This document shows positions 1 through 10,402 of a DNA stretch of 10,458 bases, piece by piece (within the stretch, counting starts at the first letter, position 1; every line of letters starts with the position of its first letter). The stretch is from assembly GCA_021817355.1 (NCBI GenBank), contig JAKAVI010000086.1, forward strand, positions 1 to 10,458, in the 5' to 3' direction. The notes beneath the pieces were generated by a model. It ran no database searches. It was not told where the DNA came from and saw only the letters and a list, made by a program, of their open reading frames with translations. A program made the position numbers and the translations under genes. The DNA comes from Pseudomonadota bacterium. Lineage in GTDB: Bacteria > Pseudomonadota > Alphaproteobacteria > Micropepsales > Micropepsaceae.

Positions 1-134
1 GACGAGCGCACCAAGGCATAGAAATGCTCCTGTACGTCAATACCCTCGAACTGGGCACAGGCGGCCTTGGCGATGGTGTTCAAGGTTTCGCCGGTCGAAT
101 CTGAGACCAGATGGAGATGAACCCGCCTGTTCAT
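1..134 (-). CDS. Pyruvate, phosphate dikinase regulatory protein (DUF299 family), N-terminal part
   Basis: This is the first 44 codons of a gene that runs off the left edge of the window. The ATG is at 134 on the minus strand, and an in-frame TAA lies 8 codons upstream (159-161), so the start is well bounded. No clear Shine-Dalgarno sequence precedes it. The visible protein begins [19 protein letters not shown] and continues through [11 protein letters not shown] to LVRS. The [13 protein letters not shown] opening is the hallmark of the DUF299/PDRP family (RP001 in Rickettsia). These are bifunctional cytosolic enzymes that inactivate pyruvate phosphate dikinase or PEP synthase by ADP-dependent threonine phosphorylation and reactivate it by phosphate-dependent dephosphorylation. 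The P-loop-containing remainder lies outside the window. Which dikinase it controls cannot be told from this fragment. Divergence from hemE across a non-coding gap matches the Caulobacter origin region. Confidence 0.88.
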
Positions 135-255
135 AAGAGACGCATCTTTGGATCTGAATTACCCCCAGCTCGTACACATTCCATCACGCCAGGACCACAG
201 CCTTCAACAGCTCAGGCGGCCAAGAAGATGAATCCATCCCCAAGCTAAGGCCAGA

Positions 256-275
256 GGGTGCACCCTTGGTGCACC
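256..275. repeat. Two phased GGTGCACC palindromes
   Basis: GGTGCACC occurs at 257-264 and again at 268-275. Each copy is a perfect palindrome, and the first extends to GGGTGCACCC (256-265). Their starts are 11 bp apart, about one helical turn, so a dimeric protein could bind both copies on the same DNA face. The binding protein is unknown. The repeats sit in the middle of the candidate origin. Confidence 0.6.
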
Positions 276-344
276 ACTGCCTGGACACTGTGTACGGCCA
301 GCGCCAAGGCAGATCCAGCTGGCAGAACGCCTGGAGTCTTGAGT

Positions 345-358
345 CCCAATAGCTTGGG
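345..358. repeat. Inverted repeat CCCAA-TAGC-TTGGG
   Basis: This is a perfect 5-bp inverted repeat with a 4-base spacer. It directly follows the GAGTC at 341-345 and lies in the candidate origin upstream of the hemE promoter. It could be an operator or a small hairpin, but nothing in the sequence identifies a binding protein. Confidence 0.45.
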
Positions 359-385
359 TTCTAGAGCTGGCGCCGGTCCACCCAT

Positions 386-401
386 CCATGCACAATTCAC
401 A
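386..401 (+). promoter_or_regulatory. Tandem DnaA-box-like sites
   Basis: CCATGCACA (386-394) and CAATTCACA (393-401) lie in the same orientation and overlap by two bases. Each matches the E. coli-type consensus TTATNCACA at 7 of 9 positions, with the ATNCACA core intact. They abut the AT-rich stretch 391-440, and the first overlaps the predicted -35 element of hemE. DnaA binding is inferred from the sequence match and the genomic position only. Confidence 0.4.
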
Positions 402-417
402 GACCTAACATCATAAT
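389..417 (+). promoter_or_regulatory. Predicted hemE promoter
   Basis: A -35-like TGCACA (389-394, 4 of 6 to TTGACA) is followed by a 17-bp spacer and a -10 CATAAT (412-417, 5 of 6 to TATAAT). Transcription would start near 424, leaving a very short leader before the AAGGAG ribosome binding site at 428-433. GAATC (420-424) and GAGTC (431-435) flank the predicted start, so adenine methylation by a CcrM-type enzyme could influence it. The weaker alternative TTGAGT (339-344) with TAGAGC (362-367) also has a 17-bp spacer. Confidence 0.45.
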
Positions 418-440
418 CAGAATCTTTAAGGAGTCTTTCT

Positions 441-1481
441 GTGGTAGAGGCCGAGGCGAAGAAGGTTATACGGGTTCTCGATGGAACCTCGGTGTCGCCG
501 CCCCCTGTATGGCTGATGCGGCAAGCCGGTCGCTACCTGCCTGAATATCGCGCCCTGAGGGCCAAGGCCGGGTCATTTTGGTCCATGTGCATGGATCCAG
601 AGATGGCCACAGAAATCACGTTGCAGCCAATCTGGCGTTTCGGCCTGGATGCGGCGATTGTCTTTTCTGACATCCTTGTTGTTCCTTATGCGCTGGGAGC
701 GGAGGTGCGATTTGAGGAAGGGATAGGGCCGCTTCTGACCCGCTATGAGGAGATTGCACAAATCGATCGTGATCCGCGCAGCTGGCGACAGAAGCTTGCG
801 CCGGTTTACGACACGCTCCGCCTGGTGCGGGCCGGGCTTGAGAGCAGCAGGGCGCTTCTTGGCTTTGCTGGAGCACCGTGGACGCTGGCGACTTACCTTG
901 CGGAGGGTGGCGGCTCGAACGATCAGCATGCGGCCAAGCTGTGGGGCTATCGCAATGGGGAAAGCTTTGCCGAGTTGCTGGCGCTTTTGAGTGAATGTGT
1001 AGCCGAGCATCTGATCGAACAGCTGAGGGCTGGTGCAGATGCCGTGCAGATCTTTGACAGCTGGGCGAGTGGGCTTTCTACCGACTGTTTTGAGGACTGG
1101 GTGATCCGGCCGACGCAGCGCATCGTAGCGAAGGTACGCAAGGAGATCCCCAACGCGCGGATCATAGGGTTTCCCCGAGGAGCCACCTTGGAAGGCTACC
1201 GCTGCTATGCGGAATGTTGCGGTGTCAGTGCGGTATCCCTCGATACGGCGGTGCCATTGGAGTGGGCGGTAGAGACGTTGACCCCGTACTGTTCATTGCA
1301 GGGTAATCTTGATCCACTTCTGCTGCTTGCTGGAGGTCAGCGGCTTGCGCGAAAGGTTCGGGAGATCCGGGAGCTGACGGAGGGCAAGGCCTTTATCTTC
1401 AATCTTGGCCACGGGGTTGTACCACAAACACCGCCCGAGCATATCAGTGCGCTTCTTGAAGTCGTACGGGCGCCCTTATGA
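441..1481 (+). CDS. hemE: Uroporphyrinogen decarboxylase HemE
   Basis: HemE removes the four acetate carboxyl groups of uroporphyrinogen III to give coproporphyrinogen III in the cytosol. The 346-residue length is normal for the family. The N-terminal signature PPVWLMRQAGRYLPEYR (residues 21-37) supplies the substrate-binding arginines R27 and R31. The catalytic aspartate is D77 in FSDIL, with Y152 in the ATYLAEGGGS segment, S207 in IFDSW, and H324 in the C-terminal FNLGHGVVPQTPP motif. Translation starts at GTG 441, seven bases after a strong AAGGAG (428-433). No better start lies nearby, and this one keeps the usual short N-terminus before the signature. The stop overlaps the hemH start in ATGA (1478-1481), indicating translational coupling. 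It is the first gene of a hemE-hemH-hemJ operon. The promoter is predicted inside the candidate origin, as for Caulobacter hemE. Confidence 0.97.
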   Translation: MVEAEAKKVIRVLDGTSVSPPPVWLMRQAGRYLPEYRALRAKAGSFWSMCMDPEMATEITLQPIWRFGLDAAIVFSDILVVPYALGAEVRFEEGIGPLLTRYEEIAQIDRDPRSWRQKLAPVYDTLRLVRAGLESSRALLGFAGAPWTLATYLAEGGGSNDQHAAKLWGYRNGESFAELLALLSECVAEHLIEQLRAGADAVQIFDSWASGLSTDCFEDWVIRPTQRIVAKVRKEIPNARIIGFPRGATLEGYRCYAECCGVSAVSLDTAVPLEWAVETLTPYCSLQGNLDPLLLLAGGQRLARKVREIRELTEGKAFIFNLGHGVVPQTPPEHISALLEVVRAPL

Positions 1482-2957: not shown

Positions 2958-3011
2958 AAAATACCCTGGGAGCGTCTTTTGGAGACTTTGCAACGGCAAC
3001 AAATCAGGCTA

Positions 3012-3021
3012 TAAGGCCTTA
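3012..3021. repeat. 10-bp palindrome TAAGGCCTTA
   Basis: This perfect palindrome lies 54 bp after hemJ, between the heme operon and rho. It is too short and lacks a T-tract to be called an intrinsic terminator. It could be an operator near a rho promoter, but that is speculative. Confidence 0.3.
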
Positions 3022-3113
3022 GTTCCCCAACACGCCACGGGCTGACGCGCTGGCAGAGGCGCGCAGAACCGGCCGAGACCGGCCCGGCGTATCGTTCAAA
3101 TCCGTTGATGTCG

Positions 3114-3180
3114 TCTGGCCGACCCGAGGTCGTCCGGAACCCATCCGGCCCGCCCTTCCACTTGCTCAGGTGTTTTCTTC
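3114..3180 (+). promoter_or_regulatory. rho leader: stem-loop plus C-rich rut-like segment
   Basis: Bases 3114-3124 pair with 3128-3138 around a CGA loop, giving an 11-position stem with one C·T mismatch and one wobble. The following stretch 3139-3170 is about half C with few G, the composition expected of a Rho utilisation site. A T-rich TGTTTTCTTC (3171-3180) runs up to the start codon. Rho autoregulates by attenuation in its own leader in several bacteria, so this could be the attenuator. No -35/-10 pair is clear in the remainder of the 223-bp gap (2958-3113). Confidence 0.4.
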
Positions 3181-5175: not shown

Positions 5176-5192
5176 CCCTGAGCGCTTCAGGG
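5176..5192. terminator. Small stem-loop between convergent genes
   Basis: CCCTGA (5176-5181) and TCAGGG (5187-5192) form a 6-bp stem with a GCGCT loop in the 12-bp gap between the HD gene and the convergent oxidoreductase, extending into the last codons of the latter. The position suits a bidirectional terminator. No T-tract follows on either strand, so this is a weak call. Confidence 0.35.
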
Positions 5193-6158
5193 CCGCAGCA
5201 CGATGGCCCCGGTGGTTGCCCGCGAATGCAGTGCAAGATGGGCGGCGCGGGCATCCTTGAGCGCGAACTGCGCATGAATGTGGATCTTGATGGTCCCTCG
5301 CAGAATGAGATCAAAGACATCGTCGGCGGTGGCCTGTAGGTCGGCCTGGGTGCTGACATAATCAAAAAGTGTCGGTCGGGTGACAAAAAGGGAGCCCTTC
5401 TGTGCCAGTATGGCGGGAGAAAAGGCGGGCACGGGCCCAGAGGCGTTGCCGAAGCTAACCATCATCCCACGCCGGGCCAGACAGTCGAGAGAGCCTTCCC
5501 AGGTGTCCTTGCCGATGGAGTCATAGACAACCGGAACGCCGCTGCCGCCGGTCAGAGTGCGAACTTTTGCCACCCAGTCTTCGGTGCGTGTGTTCAGAAC
5601 ATGGGCACAGCCATACGCATGGGCGAGGGCCCGCTTGTCGTCCGAGCCTACGGTGCCGATGACCTCTGCACCGAGGGAGCGGCCCCACTGGCTTGCGATC
5701 GAGCCCACGCCTCCTGCTGCTGCATGCCACAGGATGGTTTGGCCCGGGGCAACGCCAAAGCAGCGCTTGAGAAGAAACTGGACCGTCATGCCCTTGAGCA
5801 TGGCGGCAACGGCGATGTCATCGCCAAGCTGTGGCGGCAAGATGATCAGTCGGTTGGCCAGAACATTGGCGCCTTCGGCATAGCCCACAAGAGGCTGGGT
5901 GCAATAGCCGACGCGCTGGCCGAGGTGAAAGCCGGTGACGCCCTCGCCCAGGGCCTCGATGGTGCCTACCGCTTCACCGCCAAGGGTAGCTGGCAGGGGT
6001 ACGGGGTAGAGTCCGCTGCGGTGATAGGTATCGATGAAATTCACGCCGATGGCAGTGTGGCGCAGGCGCACCTGGCCTGGTGCAGGCTGGGGCAGGTCGA
6101 TGTCGACATACTCGAGAACTTCAGGTCCGCCTGTCTTGGCAATGCGAATGGCTTTCAT
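5187..6158 (-). CDS. NADPH:quinone oxidoreductase (zinc-free MDR family)
   Basis: A 323-residue cytosolic enzyme of the zinc-independent medium-chain dehydrogenase/reductase family, most like QOR, which reduces quinones or enones with NADPH. The N-terminal GroES-like domain begins MKAIRIAKTGGPEVLEYVD and contains VNFIDTYHRSGLYPVPLP (39-56) and the LGGEAVG segment (59-65). The Rossmann fold has HAAAGGVGS (145-153) and GTVGSDDK (168-175), where K175 matches the NADPH-binding lysine of E. coli QOR. The C-terminal SRATTGAIVLRP keeps the conserved arginine (R313). The usual tyrosine in the NYR motif is replaced (VLNTRTEDW, 187-195). No structural or catalytic zinc cysteine motif is present. GGGAG (6168-6172 as read on the minus strand) lies 9 bases before ATG 6158. 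The gene is divergent from an MFS transporter, which hints at shared control through the palindrome at 6259-6270. The physiological substrate is not evident. Confidence 0.9.
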   Translation of the reverse strand: MKAIRIAKTGGPEVLEYVDIDLPQPAPGQVRLRHTAIGVNFIDTYHRSGLYPVPLPATLGGEAVGTIEALGEGVTGFHLGQRVGYCTQPLVGYAEGANVLANRLIILPPQLGDDIAVAAMLKGMTVQFLLKRCFGVAPGQTILWHAAAGGVGSIASQWGRSLGAEVIGTVGSDDKRALAHAYGCAHVLNTRTEDWVAKVRTLTGGSGVPVVYDSIGKDTWEGSLDCLARRGMMVSFGNASGPVPAFSPAILAQKGSLFVTRPTLFDYVSTQADLQATADDVFDLILRGTIKIHIHAQFALKDARAAHLALHSRATTGAIVLRP

Positions 6159-6258
6159 CAGCAGGGTCTCCCGACGGTGGGTATGGTGACAGGGTTACCA
6201 GTCTTTGCGGGGCACGATGATCCGTCCCGCGCCAAAATCAAGTTCAGGATGATGGCTT

Positions 6259-6270
6259 GCGTCATGACGC
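6259..6270. promoter_or_regulatory. 12-bp perfect palindrome, candidate operator
   Basis: GCGTCATGACGC is perfectly self-complementary and sits in the 151-bp divergent gap between the quinone oxidoreductase and MFS genes. It overlaps a weak -35-like TTGCGT (6257-6262) of the MFS gene, so a dimeric regulator bound here could repress that gene and perhaps both. No regulator gene lies in the window. The rest of the gap shows no clear promoter for the oxidoreductase. Confidence 0.45.
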
Positions 6271-6309
6271 CAACAGAACAATGCTCGCCAGACAAGAAGC
6301 TGCTCGGTT

Positions 6310-7539
6310 ATGGCAGGGCGAATGATCAGCAAAGAAGATGAACACAGCCTGATGGTCAATGAGGCCGTGGGGGAACGCCTCAGCCTGGCGCAGGCGGTGG
6401 CCGTGATCATGATGGGCGTCTGCGGATTGCTCATGTCCGGGGTGATGCCGGTTCTAATGGGCGGGTTGGTAGATTTGCATCGCCTCGACCCATCGCAGCT
6501 TGGGGTGACGGCCATGGCGGAGGGTCTTGTCATGGGCGTGTCGACGGCGGTGGCCTCGGCGCTACTGCCTCCGCGCGCGCTGCGGGCGTGGGCCGTGGGT
6601 TCTTCGCTCGCCCTGGCGGTACTCAGTGGTGCCGGAGCCTGGGCATCAGGCGCTGTGGTGATTGTGCTGCGTGCGCTGGCGGGATTGCCCGAAGGGATAT
6701 TGCTGTGGATCAGCATCGGCATGATCGCCCGGCATGCGACCCCTGAGCGGATGAGTGCTGTGCTTCTGGCCGCGATGACGGCGGCACAGTTTGTGCTCGC
6801 ACTTCTGCTCACGCTGGTGGTACTGCCGCGATTTGGCGTGTCCGGAGGCTTTATTGCCCTGGCCCTGGGCAGCCTGATGGCGGTCATCGCCGCAGCCAAG
6901 CTGCCGCGATCCTATGCGCCACTCATAAAGCCTGTAGGCGAAAGTACGGCGCCGCCTCCGCGCGGCTGGGTTGGCTTGGCGGCGACGGTCATATTCACTG
7001 CCTCGTTTCCGGCGGTCGCCGTATTTCTGCAGCCGATTGCCCATCAGGCCGGTCATGACGCGCAGGTGGCACGGCTGGCGTTGACGCTGTCGCTGTTTGC
7101 TCAGCTGATCGGCGGAGGCGTGGCGACATGGATTGCCGGACGCATTCACTATCTTCCGGTACTGCTGGGTGGCAGTGTGATCTATGTCGGCTGCTGGGCG
7201 GTGATGGGTGTTCAGGAGCCAAGCTGGGCATTCATTGCTGCCGTGACCGTGACGGGGTTCTGTTATCTCGGCATCACGCCGTTTTTGGTGCCGATGCTGA
7301 TTGAGGCCGATCCCTCACGGCGGGCGGCGATGATGGGCGGCGGGGCCCAGGTCTTGGCGGGCGCTCTTGGTCCGCTTGCTTCCTCACAGCTGGTGAGCAG
7401 GAGCAATGTCGATCCTGTCCTCTGGCTGGCGGCGTCGCTGCTGCTGTGCGGCCTTGCCATTATTATCGGTCTTTATTTCTTCGAGCGCCGCCAGCGCCTG
7501 CTGCGTCAGCTGGTGATCGTACCACAGGATCTCAGCTGA
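6310..7539 (+). CDS. MFS transporter, 12 TM
   Basis: This 409-residue inner-membrane protein has about twelve hydrophobic helices, roughly at residues 28-52, 63-85, 92-113, 116-142, 148-172, 177-199, 220-243, 255-277, 285-303, 309-333, 340-362 and 370-392. A charged central loop (about 200-218, PRSYAPLIKPVGEST) separates the two halves. This is the classic major facilitator layout for proton-coupled import or export of small molecules. I cannot assign a substrate. No drug-efflux motif stands out, and the N-terminal half lacks a clean GxLaDrxGrkxxl motif A between helices 2 and 3. Start choice is uncertain: ATG 6310, 6322 and 6352 are all in frame, and none has a good Shine-Dalgarno (CAGGG at 6314-6318 is very close to 6322). 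The stop overlaps the convergent hydrolase gene by 8 bp. Confidence 0.82.
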   Translation: MAGRMISKEDEHSLMVNEAVGERLSLAQAVAVIMMGVCGLLMSGVMPVLMGGLVDLHRLDPSQLGVTAMAEGLVMGVSTAVASALLPPRALRAWAVGSSLALAVLSGAGAWASGAVVIVLRALAGLPEGILLWISIGMIARHATPERMSAVLLAAMTAAQFVLALLLTLVVLPRFGVSGGFIALALGSLMAVIAAAKLPRSYAPLIKPVGESTAPPPRGWVGLAATVIFTASFPAVAVFLQPIAHQAGHDAQVARLALTLSLFAQLIGGGVATWIAGRIHYLPVLLGGSVIYVGCWAVMGVQEPSWAFIAAVTVTGFCYLGITPFLVPMLIEADPSRRAAMMGGGAQVLAGALGPLASSQLVSRSNVDPVLWLAASLLLCGLAIIIGLYFFERRQRLLRQLVIVPQDLS

Positions 7540-7552
7540 GATGCTGACGCAG
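7501..7552. repeat. Nested inverted repeats at the convergent MFS/hydrolase junction
   Basis: CTGCGTCAGC (7501-7510) and GCTGACGCAG (7543-7552) are perfect 10-bp inverted repeats 32 bp apart. Inside them, abutting the right arm, is a 14-bp perfect palindrome ATCTCAGCTGAGAT (7529-7542) that contains both stop codons. Each strand's transcript could fold the same way, so a bidirectional terminator or mRNA 3'-end protector is plausible. There is no T-tract. The outer arms encode Leu-Arg-Gln near the C-terminus of both proteins. Confidence 0.55.
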
Positions 7553-8230
7553 AAAGGTGGTTGAGCGCGTGTTGGCGAGATCGGCGCAGGCCTGATCGTA
7601 ATTGGCGCCACCCTGGCGGGCAAAGGCATGGTCCATCGTGGGATAGTGGTGGAGTGTGACCAGGGGATTGGATTTGAGACCGTCGGTGATCTTTTCCTGT
7701 GCCTCGGGAGGCACGAATTGATCCTTGCCGGCGATGTGCAGCATGAGCGGTGCGCGAATATTGCGGGCTTCTGCCATCCGGTCCTGGATGTTAACGCCAT
7801 AATAACCCACACAGGCATCGGCGTCGGTGCGGCAGGCGGTCAGATAGGCAAGCTGGCCACCCAGGCAATAACCGACGGCCCCGATCTTGCCGGTGCAGCC
7901 GGAGAGCTGGCGGGTGTAGCTGATCGCCGTGGCGATGTCGGTGATGCCCTTGTCGATATCAAATCGTGTCATGAGGTCGAAGGCGCGTTTCCACTCCGCG
8001 TCGGTCTTGTCCGTAAGCTGCACTCCTGGTTCCAGGCGCCAGAACAAGTCGGGGGCGAGAGCAAAGAAGCCACGCGCGGCGTAGGCATCGGCAATGTCGC
8101 GCATGACCTGGTTGATGCCGAATATTTCCTGGATGACGATGAGCCCTGGACCGCGCCCGGATTCGGGGACCGAAAGATAGCCCTGGAAACGACCGTCCTT
8201 ACCCTCAAGCGTGATGTTACGTCCACCCAT
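7532..8230 (-). CDS. Dienelactone hydrolase family protein
   Basis: An alpha/beta-hydrolase of 232 residues, the usual length for dienelactone hydrolases, probably cytosolic since no signal peptide is visible. The nucleophile is C122 in VGYCLGG (119-125), the acid is D170 in HIAGKDQFVP, and the base is H201 in PTMDHAF. The conserved glutamate E35 in VIQEIFGIN, which activates the cysteine in the Pseudomonas enzyme, is present. Family members open dienelactones in chlorocatechol breakdown, but many are general carboxylesterases, and no aromatic-degradation gene is nearby, so the substrate is open. I chose ATG 8230 because GGGGAG (8238-8243 as read on the minus strand) lies 7 bases upstream. 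An upstream ATG at 8287 would add 19 residues that run through a strong hairpin. The gene lies 87 bp downstream of the DUF255 gene on the same strand, and its stop overlaps the convergent MFS gene. Confidence 0.9.
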   Translation of the reverse strand: MGGRNITLEGKDGRFQGYLSVPESGRGPGLIVIQEIFGINQVMRDIADAYAARGFFALAPDLFWRLEPGVQLTDKTDAEWKRAFDLMTRFDIDKGITDIATAISYTRQLSGCTGKIGAVGYCLGGQLAYLTACRTDADACVGYYGVNIQDRMAEARNIRAPLMLHIAGKDQFVPPEAQEKITDGLKSNPLVTLHHYPTMDHAFARQGGANYDQACADLANTRSTTFLRQHLS

Positions 8231-8249
8231 AGCCAGTCTCCCCGGAATG

Positions 8250-8281
8250 CAGCGCCCGCAGGCTATCCTGTGCGGGCGCTG
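8250..8281 (-). terminator. Strong 11-bp GC-rich stem-loop between the DUF255 and hydrolase genes
   Basis: CAGCGCCCGCA (8250-8260) pairs perfectly with TGCGGGCGCTG (8271-8281) around a 10-base loop. It lies 37 bp past the DUF255 stop and just 7 bp before the hydrolase ribosome binding site in the direction of transcription. It fits a terminator of the DUF255 gene without a T-tract, or a leader structure of the hydrolase mRNA, or both. Confidence 0.6.
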
Positions 8282-8317
8282 TGGCAAAGTCTCGAATTGA
8301 CGCGCGTCAGTGGCCGA

Positions 8318-10402
8318 TCAGTTTAGCTTCTGGCCGACTTTTGCGGCCTCGGCGCGCGCCTTCATTGCCATTGCAAGTTGTGCTGGCAGGATCAATTGTT
8401 GGGCAAGCTGGCCTGGATCGGTAATGGGTGCCGAACACATGGTGTTTTGGCAGATATAGGCAGTGGGCTCGCCGTCCAGCATGGTTTTGCCATGCGCGAT
8501 ATGACCTTGCGGCAGCTTGTGGGCCGGCGAAACGACCATGAGCACATGTGGAGGCAGGGTACGCGAGCGTACGGCATCGACAAGTGCACGCGTCTTGGCA
8601 TTGGAGGTGGGGCCCACGATCACGATCTGAAGAGATAGCAGCGCGGTTTCAAAGCCGCTCAAGTAGGTTGGCATGGACAGGGGAGCCCGGCTCAGCTCGC
8701 CGGCAAAGGCGGTCAAGATGGCGTTGAGACGGTCGCGGTAGGCGGTGTCGGCGGTGATGAGAAAGAGCTTGGTTAGCTCGCCGATCATCACCCCGTTTGC
8801 ACTTGGCGTCACCTGATCGAATATGGTCCGTGGACGGACGAAAAGCGCCGGCTGGTCATTGGCCGTCATGCAGTAGCCACCGTGGATTGGATCCCAATAG
8901 GAGGCATCAAGCACCCGTACCCACGCCTTGGCGTGTTCGATGTAGCGGGCATCCTGCGTGGCGTCAAAGAGCGTAAGCGCGGCACGGATCATCTGGGCAT
9001 AGTCGTCGGAGAAGCCTTCTTTGCTGCGGGAGTTGCCGCGCCAGCAGTGCGAAAGTCGGTCGCCATCGCCGAGTGTGCTGCGGATGAACTCAAAGCTGCT
9101 TTGAGCGACAGCCAGCCACTCAGGCTGTTTGAAAGTGGCGCCGGCGCGGGCCAGTGCGGCGATCACCATGCCGTTCCAGTCTGTCAGAATCTGCTCGTCG
9201 CGCTGAGGCGTCGCGCGCTTGTTGCGCGCTTCCAGAAGCAGACTGCGCTGACGGGCGAAAAGAGTTTCGTCAGCGTCGGCGAGAGGATAGCCGGCAATGG
9301 GACCTAGTCGGTGCAGGACGTTCTTGCCATTGAGGCTTCCTTCACGGGTGACGTTGTAGACTTCCTTAAAGCGCTGCGAAAATGTGCCTTTCAGCATCGC
9401 GTCGATTTCTGCTTCGCTCCAGAGATAATACTTGCCTTCTTCGCCGTCAGTGTCGGAGTCCATGCAGGCGGCAAAGGCATCGCCAAGGCGCATGTCACGC
9501 AGCAGAAAGCGGACGGTCTCCTGGATGCGATCGATGAAGAGCGGCCATTGGTTGAACTGGGCAACCCGAACGAGCTGGTCGATGAGCAGGGCCTGGTCAT
9601 AAAGTGTCTTCTCGAAATTTGGCACGGTCCAGCGCTCGTCCGCAGCGTAACGCGCGAAGCCGCCACCGACGTGATCCCAGACGCCGCCCATGCAGATATT
9701 GTGGAGCGAGGTGAGTACGATCTGGCTGAACTGGTCGAGGCCGGTACGCAAAAAGGCGTTCCACATCACGTCCAATACATGCGGTGCAGGAAACTTCTGT
9801 GGGCCGGTGACGCCGCCATAGAAAATGTCGAAGGCCTGGCCGATGCGCACGGAGGCGGTGTCGAGCACGCTGTTGTTAATGGGGCCTCTGCGATCGCTGG
9901 CCCACAGTTCGGAGAGGCCTTCGTGGACGCGCGTGGCGTTTGCCAGCACGTCCTGTTGTTGCTCGCGCCAAGAGCGGGCAAGATCGGTGAGGACGCGGGT
10001 GAAGGAGGGTGAGCCAAAGCGGTCTTCTTTCGGTAGATAGCTGGTGGCGAAAAAAGGCTCGGTTTGGGGGGTCAAAAACACGGTCAGTGGCCAGCCACCA
10101 CCATGACCAAGCATGTTGGCAGAGGCCTGGTAGAGCTGGTCGAGGTCGGGGCGCTCTTCGCGATCAACCAGGATTGGGATAAATTCGGAGTTGATGAGGG
10201 CAGCGGTGGCAGGATCGCAGAAACTCTCGGCGTTCATCACGTGGCACCAGTGACATGCGGCATAACCAATCGACAACAGAATGGGCTTGCCCTTTGTACG
10301 TGCCTCTTCAAGGGCAGCTTCGCCCCAGACGCGCCACTCAACGGGATTGTCCTTATGGGCAAGAAGGTAGGGGCTGGTCGTGTGGGCGAGCTGATTGCTC
10401 AT
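8318..10402 (-). CDS. DUF255 thioredoxin-fold protein (YyaL/SPATA20 family)
   Basis: This 694-residue protein has the full length and layout of the YyaL/SPATA20 family: an N-terminal thioredoxin-like domain (about 1-165) and a long helical region resembling six-hairpin glycosidases. N-terminal landmarks are TTSPYLLAHKDNPVEW (8-23), KPILLSIGYAACHWCHVMNAESF with the redox-type C50-H-W-C53 motif (39-61), VDREERPDLD (79-88) and GGGWPL (101-106). The molecular function of the family is not established; protein folding, redox or sugar-related roles have been suggested. No signal peptide is visible, so a cytosolic location is likely. ATG 10402 has AGGA (10410-10413 as read on the minus strand) 7 bases upstream, and the protein begins at the normal family position (MSNQLAHTTSPYL). 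It may share a transcript with the hydrolase 87 bp downstream, although a strong hairpin separates them. Confidence 0.93.
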   Translation of the reverse strand: MSNQLAHTTSPYLLAHKDNPVEWRVWGEAALEEARTKGKPILLSIGYAACHWCHVMNAESFCDPATAALINSEFIPILVDREERPDLDQLYQASANMLGHGGGWPLTVFLTPQTEPFFATSYLPKEDRFGSPSFTRVLTDLARSWREQQQDVLANATRVHEGLSELWASDRRGPINNSVLDTASVRIGQAFDIFYGGVTGPQKFPAPHVLDVMWNAFLRTGLDQFSQIVLTSLHNICMGGVWDHVGGGFARYAADERWTVPNFEKTLYDQALLIDQLVRVAQFNQWPLFIDRIQETVRFLLRDMRLGDAFAACMDSDTDGEEGKYYLWSEAEIDAMLKGTFSQRFKEVYNVTREGSLNGKNVLHRLGPIAGYPLADADETLFARQRSLLLEARNKRATPQRDEQILTDWNGMVIAALARAGATFKQPEWLAVAQSSFEFIRSTLGDGDRLSHCWRGNSRSKEGFSDDYAQMIRAALTLFDATQDARYIEHAKAWVRVLDASYWDPIHGGYCMTANDQPALFVRPRTIFDQVTPSANGVMIGELTKLFLITADTAYRDRLNAILTAFAGELSRAPLSMPTYLSGFETALLSLQIVIVGPTSNAKTRALVDAVRSRTLPPHVLMVVSPAHKLPQGHIAHGKTMLDGEPTAYICQNTMCSAPITDPGQLAQQLILPAQLAMAMKARAEAAKVGQKLN

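What the first reader, a model, noticed from the sequence alone, without database searches (positions are those of the whole stretch)
135..440. Candidate chromosome origin between the RP001-family gene and hemE
The divergent RP001/hemE arrangement is the published setting of the Caulobacter origin and is conserved near the Rickettsia origin. The gap is non-coding, has an AT-rich end, DnaA-like boxes, an IHF-like site and clustered methylation sites. If correct, the window begins at a replication origin whose architecture differs from Caulobacter (no full CtrA box, no perfect DnaA box).
Basis: partly seen in the sequence, partly recalled or inferred. Interest (0 to 1): 0.75.

Follow-up and report, generated by a model that had tools for sequence, protein, structure and literature searches.

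The report
Likely chromosome replication origin beside hemE
The short stretch between two back-to-back genes is most likely where this uncultured bacterium starts copying its chromosome, and its relatives keep the same candidate DNA-opening module and methylation sites there even when the neighbouring gene has been lost.

Summary
The 306-bp gap (135-440) between the divergent RP001-family gene and hemE is real. It lies at the most AT-rich spot of the window and holds 5 of the window's 15 GANTC sites. No whole genome is held for the window, so the origin claim rests on relatives. On the closest relative's contig the strand-balanced GC skew jumps from about -0.02 (30 kb left) to +0.23 (right of the gap); no such flip is seen at dnaA in a close relative. 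On two single-contig chromosomes the balanced fit puts the origin about 10-50 kb from the gap. parS lies about 6-28 kb from hemE in 11 genomes; in 3 genomes whose hemE has left, parS stays with RP001.

An order-wide module precedes hemE: tandem degenerate DnaA boxes, a DnaA-trio-like tract, an AT-rich end, fixed GANTC sites. It survives repeated hemE loss (6 changes on the best tree, 3 forced) while hemE's ribosome-binding site decays.

No CtrA site, IHF site or good DnaA box is in the gap. G031 gives contrary skew, G028 mixed, and G073 raw GC skew cannot separate gap from dnaA. Verdict: a hemE-locus oriC, variant of a known kind; methylation gating is the untested novel reading.

The parts
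3..134 (-). N-terminal 44 codons of the RP001-family gene (Kinase-PPPase / pyruvate,water dikinase regulatory protein), cut by the window end
   Evidence: PF03618 E 6.3e-08; 95% identical to the RP001 protein of L001
135..440 (.). Intergenic candidate oriC, 306 bp
   Evidence: Divergent RP001|hemE in all 30 relatives first fetched (G001, fetched twice as L001 and L003, and 29 others, L004-L032), gaps 200-304 bp; window 306
135..214 (.). RP001-proximal conserved block (86% identical to L001, against 55% in the middle 215-332)
   Evidence: alignment
170..178 (+). TCGTACACA, DnaA-box-like, 2 mismatches to TTWTNCACA; GTACACA kept in the three nearest relatives (L001, L004, L005)
237..242 (+). TCCCCA (the W-box sequence of Caulobacter), at the same place in the three nearest relatives
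   Evidence: alignment; TCCCCA 28 in 31 gaps against 8.7 in shuffles, but 1 in the window gap alone is not significant (P 0.28); W-box definition from PMC4285127
257..275 (.). Inverted repeat around GGTGCACC; only partly kept in L001, role unknown
   Evidence: z -2.0; GTGCAC 2 in the gap against 0.08 in shuffles
339..345 (+). TTGAGTC, putative hemE -35 element that contains a GANTC site (another GAGTC at 334-338)
   Evidence: TTGANTC at this place in 26 of 31 gaps
361..366 (+). CTAGAG, putative hemE -10 element (16-nt spacer)
   Evidence: promoter role inferred
386..394 (+). CCATGCACA, first of two tandem DnaA-box-like sites (3 mismatches to TTATCCACA)
   Evidence: tandem CCACAANTCACAG with <=2 mismatches in 29 of 31 gaps
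393..401 (+). CAATTCACA, second tandem DnaA-box-like site
410..418 (+). ATC-ATA-ATC, DnaA-trio-like tract (three in-frame NTN); several relatives have ATC-ATC-TTC-ATC-ATC
   Evidence: rule from PMC8287927
411..440 (.). One of the most AT-rich 30-mers of the window (70% A+T); putative DNA-unwinding end, overlapping the hemE 5' leader
420..424 (.). GAATC, GANTC site between the trio tract and the ribosome-binding site
   Evidence: a GAATC at the same distance from the boxes in 7 of the other 30 gaps
431..435 (.). GAGTC, GANTC site overlapping the hemE ribosome-binding site (AAGGAG 428-433); the most constant site of the gap
   Evidence: A GANTC site 15-62 nt beyond the tandem box in 37 of 37 hemE-bearing and 11 of 13 hemE-lacking gaps of the clade
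441..1481 (+). hemE, first gene of hemE-hemH-hemJ-rho
   Evidence: PF01208 E 3.6e-106

Best explanation
The gap is the chromosomal replication origin of a Rhizomicrobium-like (Micropepsales-like) alphaproteobacterium. Shown by sequence: the hemE-proximal 55-60 bp belong to an order-wide conserved module that follows a sigma70-like hemE promoter. Its order is two tandem degenerate DnaA boxes, a short spacer, a trinucleotide DnaA-trio-like tract, and an AT-rich end, with GANTC sites at the -35 and at the ribosome-binding site. Inferred: DnaA loads on the tandem boxes, aided by weak upstream sites (TCCCCA, TACACA), extends along the trio-like strand, and opens the AT-rich end. Transcription from the hemE promoter runs through the same DNA and may help it open. 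CtrA boxes play no part. GcrA/CcrM may tie promoter and origin to the methylation state of the GANTC sites.
For: Location: (1) Closest relative G001: balanced 4-fold GC skew -0.03, -0.03, -0.02 in the three 10-kb pieces left of the gap, +0.23 right of it; the window's right side is +0.28. (2) Single-contig chromosomes, balanced GC-minus-AT: G054 best origin 1600-1620 kb (gap 1638.5 kb), G073 2960-3000 kb (gap 3008.9 kb); 0 of 150 permutations reached the gap's fit in either. (3) parS about 6-28 kb from hemE in 11 of the 18 genomes with an exact site (26 searched); in G028, G047 and G029, where hemE has left the locus, parS is about 12-17 kb from RP001. Module: (4) published unwinding-system rule, single-box form: 10 of 31 gaps on the hemE strand against 1.8 in shuffles (maximum 6 of 200), all 10 at -50 to -54 from hemE. 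(5) 384-440 is 95% identical to L001, while hemE is 78%. (6) Gap and module survive loss of hemE in 13 of 67 genomes; hemE state changes 6 times on the best tree, 3 forced by well-supported branches. (7) Distal GANTC kept in 37 of 37 and 11 of 13; AGGAG in 32 of 37 and 2 of 13. Precedent: Hyphomonas neptunium; Caulobacter (as cited in PMC1914354).
Against: No own genome; G001 and G021 are fragmented. G073 raw GC skew fits dnaA (0.77) as well as the gap (0.74); its best range, 3170-3370 kb, contains dnaA at 3226 kb. G054: GC alone prefers 440-1370 kb (raw) or 960-1060 kb (4-fold); raw AT and GC-AT prefer 1700-1730 kb, 60-90 kb from the gap. G031:C5 raw skew has the sign opposite to that expected; G003 is weak. 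G028: raw AT skew fits 3520-3560 kb (gap 3516 kb), but GC fits 120-1100 kb, a range that holds dnaA at 910 kb; none of the four balanced fits at the gap reaches P 0.05. Left of the gap in G001 the skew is near zero, not mirror-negative. The window needs 3 mismatches to pass the rule, at which shuffles give 9.2 of 31, maximum 19 (observed 20). The trio tract is ATC-type, not 5'-CTA-3'. hemH-hemJ-rho still needs a promoter after hemE loss. The rpsT-dnaA intergenic region of G001/G021 is also conserved, AT-rich and holds 3 one-mismatch DnaA boxes.
Confidence: 0.72

Rival explanations
1. The gap is only the divergent promoter and 5' leader of RP001 and of the hem-rho operon. The origin lies nearby but elsewhere, within the tens of kb that skew and parS cannot resolve.
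For: A sigma70-like element with constant spacing is conserved. After hemE loss the same promoter would still drive hemH-hemJ-rho. Skew resolution is 10-100 kb. Another conserved stretch nearby (hemJ-rho, 2958-3180) is 90% identical to L001.
Against: A promoter does not need tandem CACA boxes, a trio tract or GANTC in fixed register. hemE's ribosome-binding site decays after hemE loss while the rest mostly stays. In six genomes searched for perfect TTATCCACA boxes (3-14 each) no two lie within 2.5 kb of each other, so no rival cluster of perfect boxes was seen. The balanced skew changes at the gap itself in G001.
Confidence: 0.15
2. The origin is at the dnaA locus (rpsT-dnaA intergenic region), as in many bacteria.
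For: In G001 and G021 this region is conserved, AT-rich (68-70% over 50 bp) and has 3 one-mismatch DnaA boxes; a perfect TTATCCACA lies close by, inside what reads as rpsT. G073 raw GC skew fits dnaA as well as the gap (0.77, 0.74). G028 GC skew prefers a range that includes dnaA.
Against: G021: balanced GC skew -0.02 before and -0.10 after dnaA, no flip. G054: dnaA lies near the skew terminus (balanced fit 0.00 against 0.67 for the gap). G073 balanced: 0.19 against 0.58. In G054, G028 and G047 parS is 1.7 Mb or more from dnaA.
Confidence: 0.08
3. The conserved hemE leader is a cis-acting RNA element (for example heme or iron control of the hem operon), not an origin.
For: The module lies downstream of the putative -10 and so would be transcribed; it is conserved over an order.
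Against: No Rfam match at E <= 1. The same box-tract-AT order, with CTA-type repeats in some, is seen in distant gaps, in several of them more than 100 nt upstream of hemE. The leader's RNA structure was not tested.
Confidence: 0.05

Closest known systems
Caulobacter crescentus Cori (origin between hemE and CC_0001/COG1806)
   Same: Same flanking genes; AT-rich end; TCCCCA W-box-like site; several GANTC motifs, which were noted for Caulobacter origins too (PMC3973325, passages)
   Different: No TTAA-N7-TTAA CtrA site in any of the 31 gaps, no TGATCCACA G-box within 1 mismatch in the window, no IHF site within 1 mismatch; GANTC in fixed positions across the order. The Caulobacter sequence itself was not available for alignment here
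Hyphomonas neptunium chromosomal origin
   Same: Marker-frequency peak close to hemE, parAB about 7 kb from hemE; GC skew and dnaA gave no clear result there (PMC6650430, passages)
   Different: Experimentally mapped; its sequence was not compared here
Basal unwinding system (DnaA boxes, spacer, DnaA-trios) of Bacillus subtilis, Helicobacter pylori and many others
   Same: Tandem boxes, spacer of 12-16 nt and at least 3 middle-T triplets in the box strand, then AT-rich DNA (PMC8287927, passages)
   Different: Triplets are ATC/TTC rather than CTA; boxes degenerate in the window (3 mismatches)
Dam/SeqA-controlled oriC of enterobacteria
   Same: Clustered adenine-methylation sites inside the origin
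   Different: GANTC/CcrM instead of GATC/Dam; no sequestration protein was looked for or is known to me; in Caulobacter CcrM is not needed for initiation control (PMC3973325)

Membership tests
hemE/RP001-locus oriC of Alphaproteobacteria | Non-coding gap between divergent RP001-family gene and hemE | tested here: met
hemE/RP001-locus oriC of Alphaproteobacteria | Skew switch at the locus | tested here: inconclusive
   Balanced skew favours it in G001, G054, G073; G073 raw GC cannot separate it from dnaA; weak in G003, contrary in G031, mixed in G028. Not testable in the window's own genome
hemE/RP001-locus oriC of Alphaproteobacteria | parS close by | tested here: met
   In relatives only: 11 of 18 genomes with an exact parS near hemE, 3 more near RP001; G001's parS is on another contig, so not seen beside the window's closest relative
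hemE/RP001-locus oriC of Alphaproteobacteria | Autonomous replication and replication start at the fragment | not testable with these tools
   needs cells
Cori-type origin as in Caulobacter | CtrA boxes TTAA-N7-TTAA | tested here: not met
   0 in the window gap and 0 in 31 gaps
Cori-type origin as in Caulobacter | G-boxes TGATCCACA | tested here: not met
   None within 1 mismatch in the window gap; 1-mismatch sites in 4 relatives
Cori-type origin as in Caulobacter | W-boxes TCCCCA | tested here: inconclusive
   1 in the window gap (P 0.28 alone); 28 in 31 gaps against 8.7
Cori-type origin as in Caulobacter | IHF site | tested here: not met
   None within 1 mismatch
Basal unwinding system | DnaA box with <=2 mismatches to TTATCCACA | tested here: not met
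   At the module the window's boxes have 3 mismatches; 10 of 31 gaps meet the full rule
Basal unwinding system | At least 3 NAN trios within 16 nt | tested here: met
   ATC-ATA-ATC after 15 nt
Basal unwinding system | DnaA-dependent strand opening | not testable with these tools
   needs purified DnaA
Methylation-gated origin | Enriched, fixed methylation sites and the enzyme | tested here: met
   GANTC 82 in 31 gaps against 27.4, mostly from fixed positions; RAMA (CcrM-type) domain in 15 of 16 and GcrA in 14 of 16 relatives searched
Methylation-gated origin | Initiation depends on methylation state | not testable with these tools
   Not required in Caulobacter

The most novel reading that the evidence does not exclude
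In this order the origin is gated by CcrM methylation. GANTC sites sit in the hemE -35 and at the far edge of the unwinding element and are kept under selection for GANTC itself: the N and the ribosome-site letters vary, and the sites mostly persist after hemE and its ribosome-binding site are gone. After initiation they would become hemimethylated, changing GcrA-dependent transcription through the unwinding element and delaying re-firing. This would be an alphaproteobacterial counterpart of Dam/SeqA control that does not need CtrA boxes.
Probability: 0.2. Interest if true: 0.82.

Novelty: new variant of a known kind. Interest (0 to 1): 0.58.

Why it matters
Alphaproteobacterial origins are hard to find when dnaA is elsewhere, skew is weak and DnaA boxes are degenerate. 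This work gives a concrete sequence module for one order, in place of a bare gene-neighbour rule. The repeated loss of hemE helps to separate origin signals from hemE expression signals. If the fixed GANTC sites matter, an old question, whether CcrM methylation ever times initiation as Dam does, becomes testable at defined bases.

Tried and rejected
- IHF site and count of DnaA-like boxes as evidence: not above chance at useful stringency.
- Perfect DnaA-box clusters elsewhere: no two perfect boxes within 2.5 kb in six genomes.
- Rfam match: none.
- Plain GC skew on G003, G031 and G028: weak, contrary or mixed, reported as such. Raw GC skew on G073 cannot separate gap from dnaA.
- The trio tract read in the wrong frame: corrected after reading the published rule.
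- The large GANTC excess over 31 gaps is mostly two fixed positions, not a general enrichment (judged).
- Independent-pairs test of ribosome-site loss: only 3 well-supported pairs, so no significance is possible.
- Taxonomy: 'Rhizomicrobium/Micropepsales-like' rests on protein names from sources, not on a genome tree.
- In one search the automatic search misplaced the module in L016, L159 and L161; four hemE rows were not found by the pattern and G038 was misplaced. G038 was dropped from the counts.
- parS tally: of 18 genomes with a site, 11 near hemE, 3 near RP001 only, G001 and G006 on other contigs of fragmented assemblies, G081 on another contig, G085 about 103 kb away; G096 has further copies elsewhere. 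8 of 26 had no exact site.
- Papers: only passages or listings were read; Brassinga 2002 is not held. Searches for a published origin in this order (best 8 of 1,463 listed) or for a hemE-promoter study (best 8 of 184 listed) showed none; that covers only those listings of the open-licence library.

Full report
What is there. The window starts with the first 44 codons of an RP001-family gene (Kinase-PPPase, PF03618) on the minus strand and continues, after a 306-bp gap, with hemE, hemH, hemJ and rho on the plus strand. The gap has no DnaA box with 0-1 mismatch (the only such site nearby, 128-136, overlaps the RP001 start codon), no CtrA box, no IHF site within one mismatch, and no Rfam match. 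The most AT-rich 30-50 bp of the window lie within 388-446, and 5 of its 15 GANTC sites are in the gap (P 4.6e-5).

Relatives. No whole genome is held for the window. One MAG in genome contigs has a HemE 83% identical (L001 = G001). Of 100 relatives of G001, 90 have a HemE match; loci came for the 30 best. All 30 (G001 and 29 others) keep RP001 and hemE divergent, with gaps of 200-304 bp. Source names of related proteins include Rhizomicrobium, which is Micropepsales.

Anatomy. Alignment of 31 gaps, the window's included, shows a conserved hemE-side block: CTTGAGTC, 15 nt, CTANAG-like (a sigma70-like promoter by look, inferred), then CCACAANTCACAG, a short C-rich spacer, ACATCATCTTCATCATC, an A/T-rich end, AGGAGTCTT, and hemE. 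Between window and L001 the RP001-side 80 bp are 86% identical, the middle 55%, and 384-440 95%; hemE itself is 78%. Conserved non-coding stretches are not unique: hemJ-rho is 90%.

Is it an unwinding module? The published search rule for the basal unwinding system asks for a DnaA box with at most 2 mismatches, a spacer up to 16 nt, and at least 3 NAN trios on the opposite strand (PMC8287927, passages). Applied in its single-box form, it hits 10 of 31 gaps on the hemE strand (shuffles mean 1.8, maximum 6 in 200), all at -50 to -54 from hemE, and 2 of 31 on the other strand (shuffles 0.5, maximum 3). In 13 further gaps (four of them from the same clade) it hits 5 (shuffles 1.3, maximum 5), not all of them at the module. 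The window passes only with 3 mismatches, where 20 of 31 gaps pass against 9.2 in shuffles (maximum 19), so on its own it proves nothing. Some distant gaps show the same order with CTA repeats, for example G075 and G086. TCCCCA, the Caulobacter W-box (PMC4285127, passages), occurs 28 times in 31 gaps against 8.7 in shuffles. Shared ancestry inflates these counts.

Is it at the origin? Raw skew was weak in G003 and contrary in G031. Strand-balanced 4-fold skew (mean of plus- and minus-strand genes) was clearer. G054 (single 4.26-Mb contig, 40 stretches): best origin 1600-1620 kb for AT and GC-AT, gap at 1638.5 kb, dnaA at 4121 kb near the terminus; GC alone preferred 960-1060 kb. G073 (single 4.23-Mb contig, 20 stretches): 2960-3000 kb, gap at 3008.9 kb, dnaA at 3226 kb. 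For GC-AT, 0 of 150 permutations reached the gap's fit in either genome. Raw skews are less decided: G054 AT and GC-AT peak at 1700-1730 kb and GC at 440-1370 kb, and G073 GC fits gap and dnaA alike, 0.74 and 0.77. In G001 the balanced GC skew is -0.03, -0.03 and -0.02 in the three 10-kb pieces left of the gap and +0.23 right of it; the window's right side gives +0.28. In G021 it is -0.02 before and -0.10 after dnaA. G028 is mixed: raw AT skew fits 3520-3560 kb (gap 3516 kb) but GC fits 120-1100 kb, which includes dnaA at 910 kb, and none of the four balanced fits at the gap reaches P 0.05. Exact parS sites occur in 18 of 26 genomes searched: 11 within about 6-28 kb of hemE, 3 near RP001 only, 4 on other contigs or far.

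A natural experiment. In 13 of 67 genomes hemE is missing from the locus and RP001 faces hemH. In G028, G047 and G029 the hemE that is present is a copy 48-49% identical to the window's, 1.4 Mb or more away or on another contig, while parS stays near RP001. On the RP001 tree hemE state needs 6 changes, 3 forced by well-supported branches. The gap length (256-306) and module persist, with variant boxes in G025 and G010. Within the clade, excluding G038, a GANTC site downstream of the boxes is present in 37 of 37 hemE-bearing and 11 of 13 hemE-lacking gaps, while AGGAG is present in 32 of 37 and 2 of 13; the tree needs 10 changes for AGGAG and 1 for GANTC. In the aligned rows that have the site, N varies (G, T, C or A) and the flanking ribosome-site letters drift (G, A, T and C are fixed there by the way rows were chosen). 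This speaks for selection on GANTC itself, although the pairwise test has too few independent pairs to be significant.

Methylation. CcrM-type RAMA domains occur in 15 of 16 relatives searched and GcrA in 14 of 16. GcrA preferentially targets promoters with methylated GANTC (PMC3667746, passages). In Caulobacter CcrM is not required for initiation control, though GANTC motifs occur in its origin (PMC3973325, passages). So a gating role here is open, not shown.

The rival at dnaA. The rpsT-dnaA intergenic region of G001 and G021 is well conserved, AT-rich and has three one-mismatch DnaA boxes, with a perfect box inside what reads as rpsT (gene names read by eye). The balanced skew argues against it as the origin, but it should be tested.

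Known or new. A hemE-locus origin is published for Caulobacter and inferred for Rickettsia (PMC1914354, passages) and mapped close to hemE in Hyphomonas (PMC6650430, passages). What differs here: no CtrA or IHF sites, degenerate tandem boxes with an ATC-type trio tract, an origin module that overlaps the hemE leader, and fixed GANTC sites. I rate it a new variant of a known kind.

Noticed in passing
G028, G047, G029, G023, G012, G058, G025, G015, G010, G052, G107, G106, G104 (L153-L162, L190, L212, L213): hemE has been lost repeatedly from the hemE-hemH-hemJ-rho operon; in the ten of these genomes covered a HemE 48-49% identical to the window's is encoded elsewhere, which looks like replacement by a distant copy.
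   Followed up: partly
window 2958-3180: The hemJ-rho intergenic region is 90% identical to L001, nearly as high as rho itself (92%); perhaps a rho leader.
   Followed up: no
L218 850-1300, L219 1700-2600: A gene that reads by eye like a rhodanese-domain protein sits between rpsT and dnaA in G001 and G021, after a conserved AT-rich intergenic region with DnaA-like boxes.
   Followed up: partly
window 5187-10402: 4-fold GC skew of the three minus-strand genes is very strong (about +0.45 on the plus strand).
   Followed up: no
G054:C1: dnaA lies near the skew terminus, about 1.8 Mb from the inferred origin.
   Followed up: partly
window 257-275: Inverted repeat GGTGCACC-CTT-GGTGCACC in the poorly conserved middle of the gap.
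   Followed up: partly
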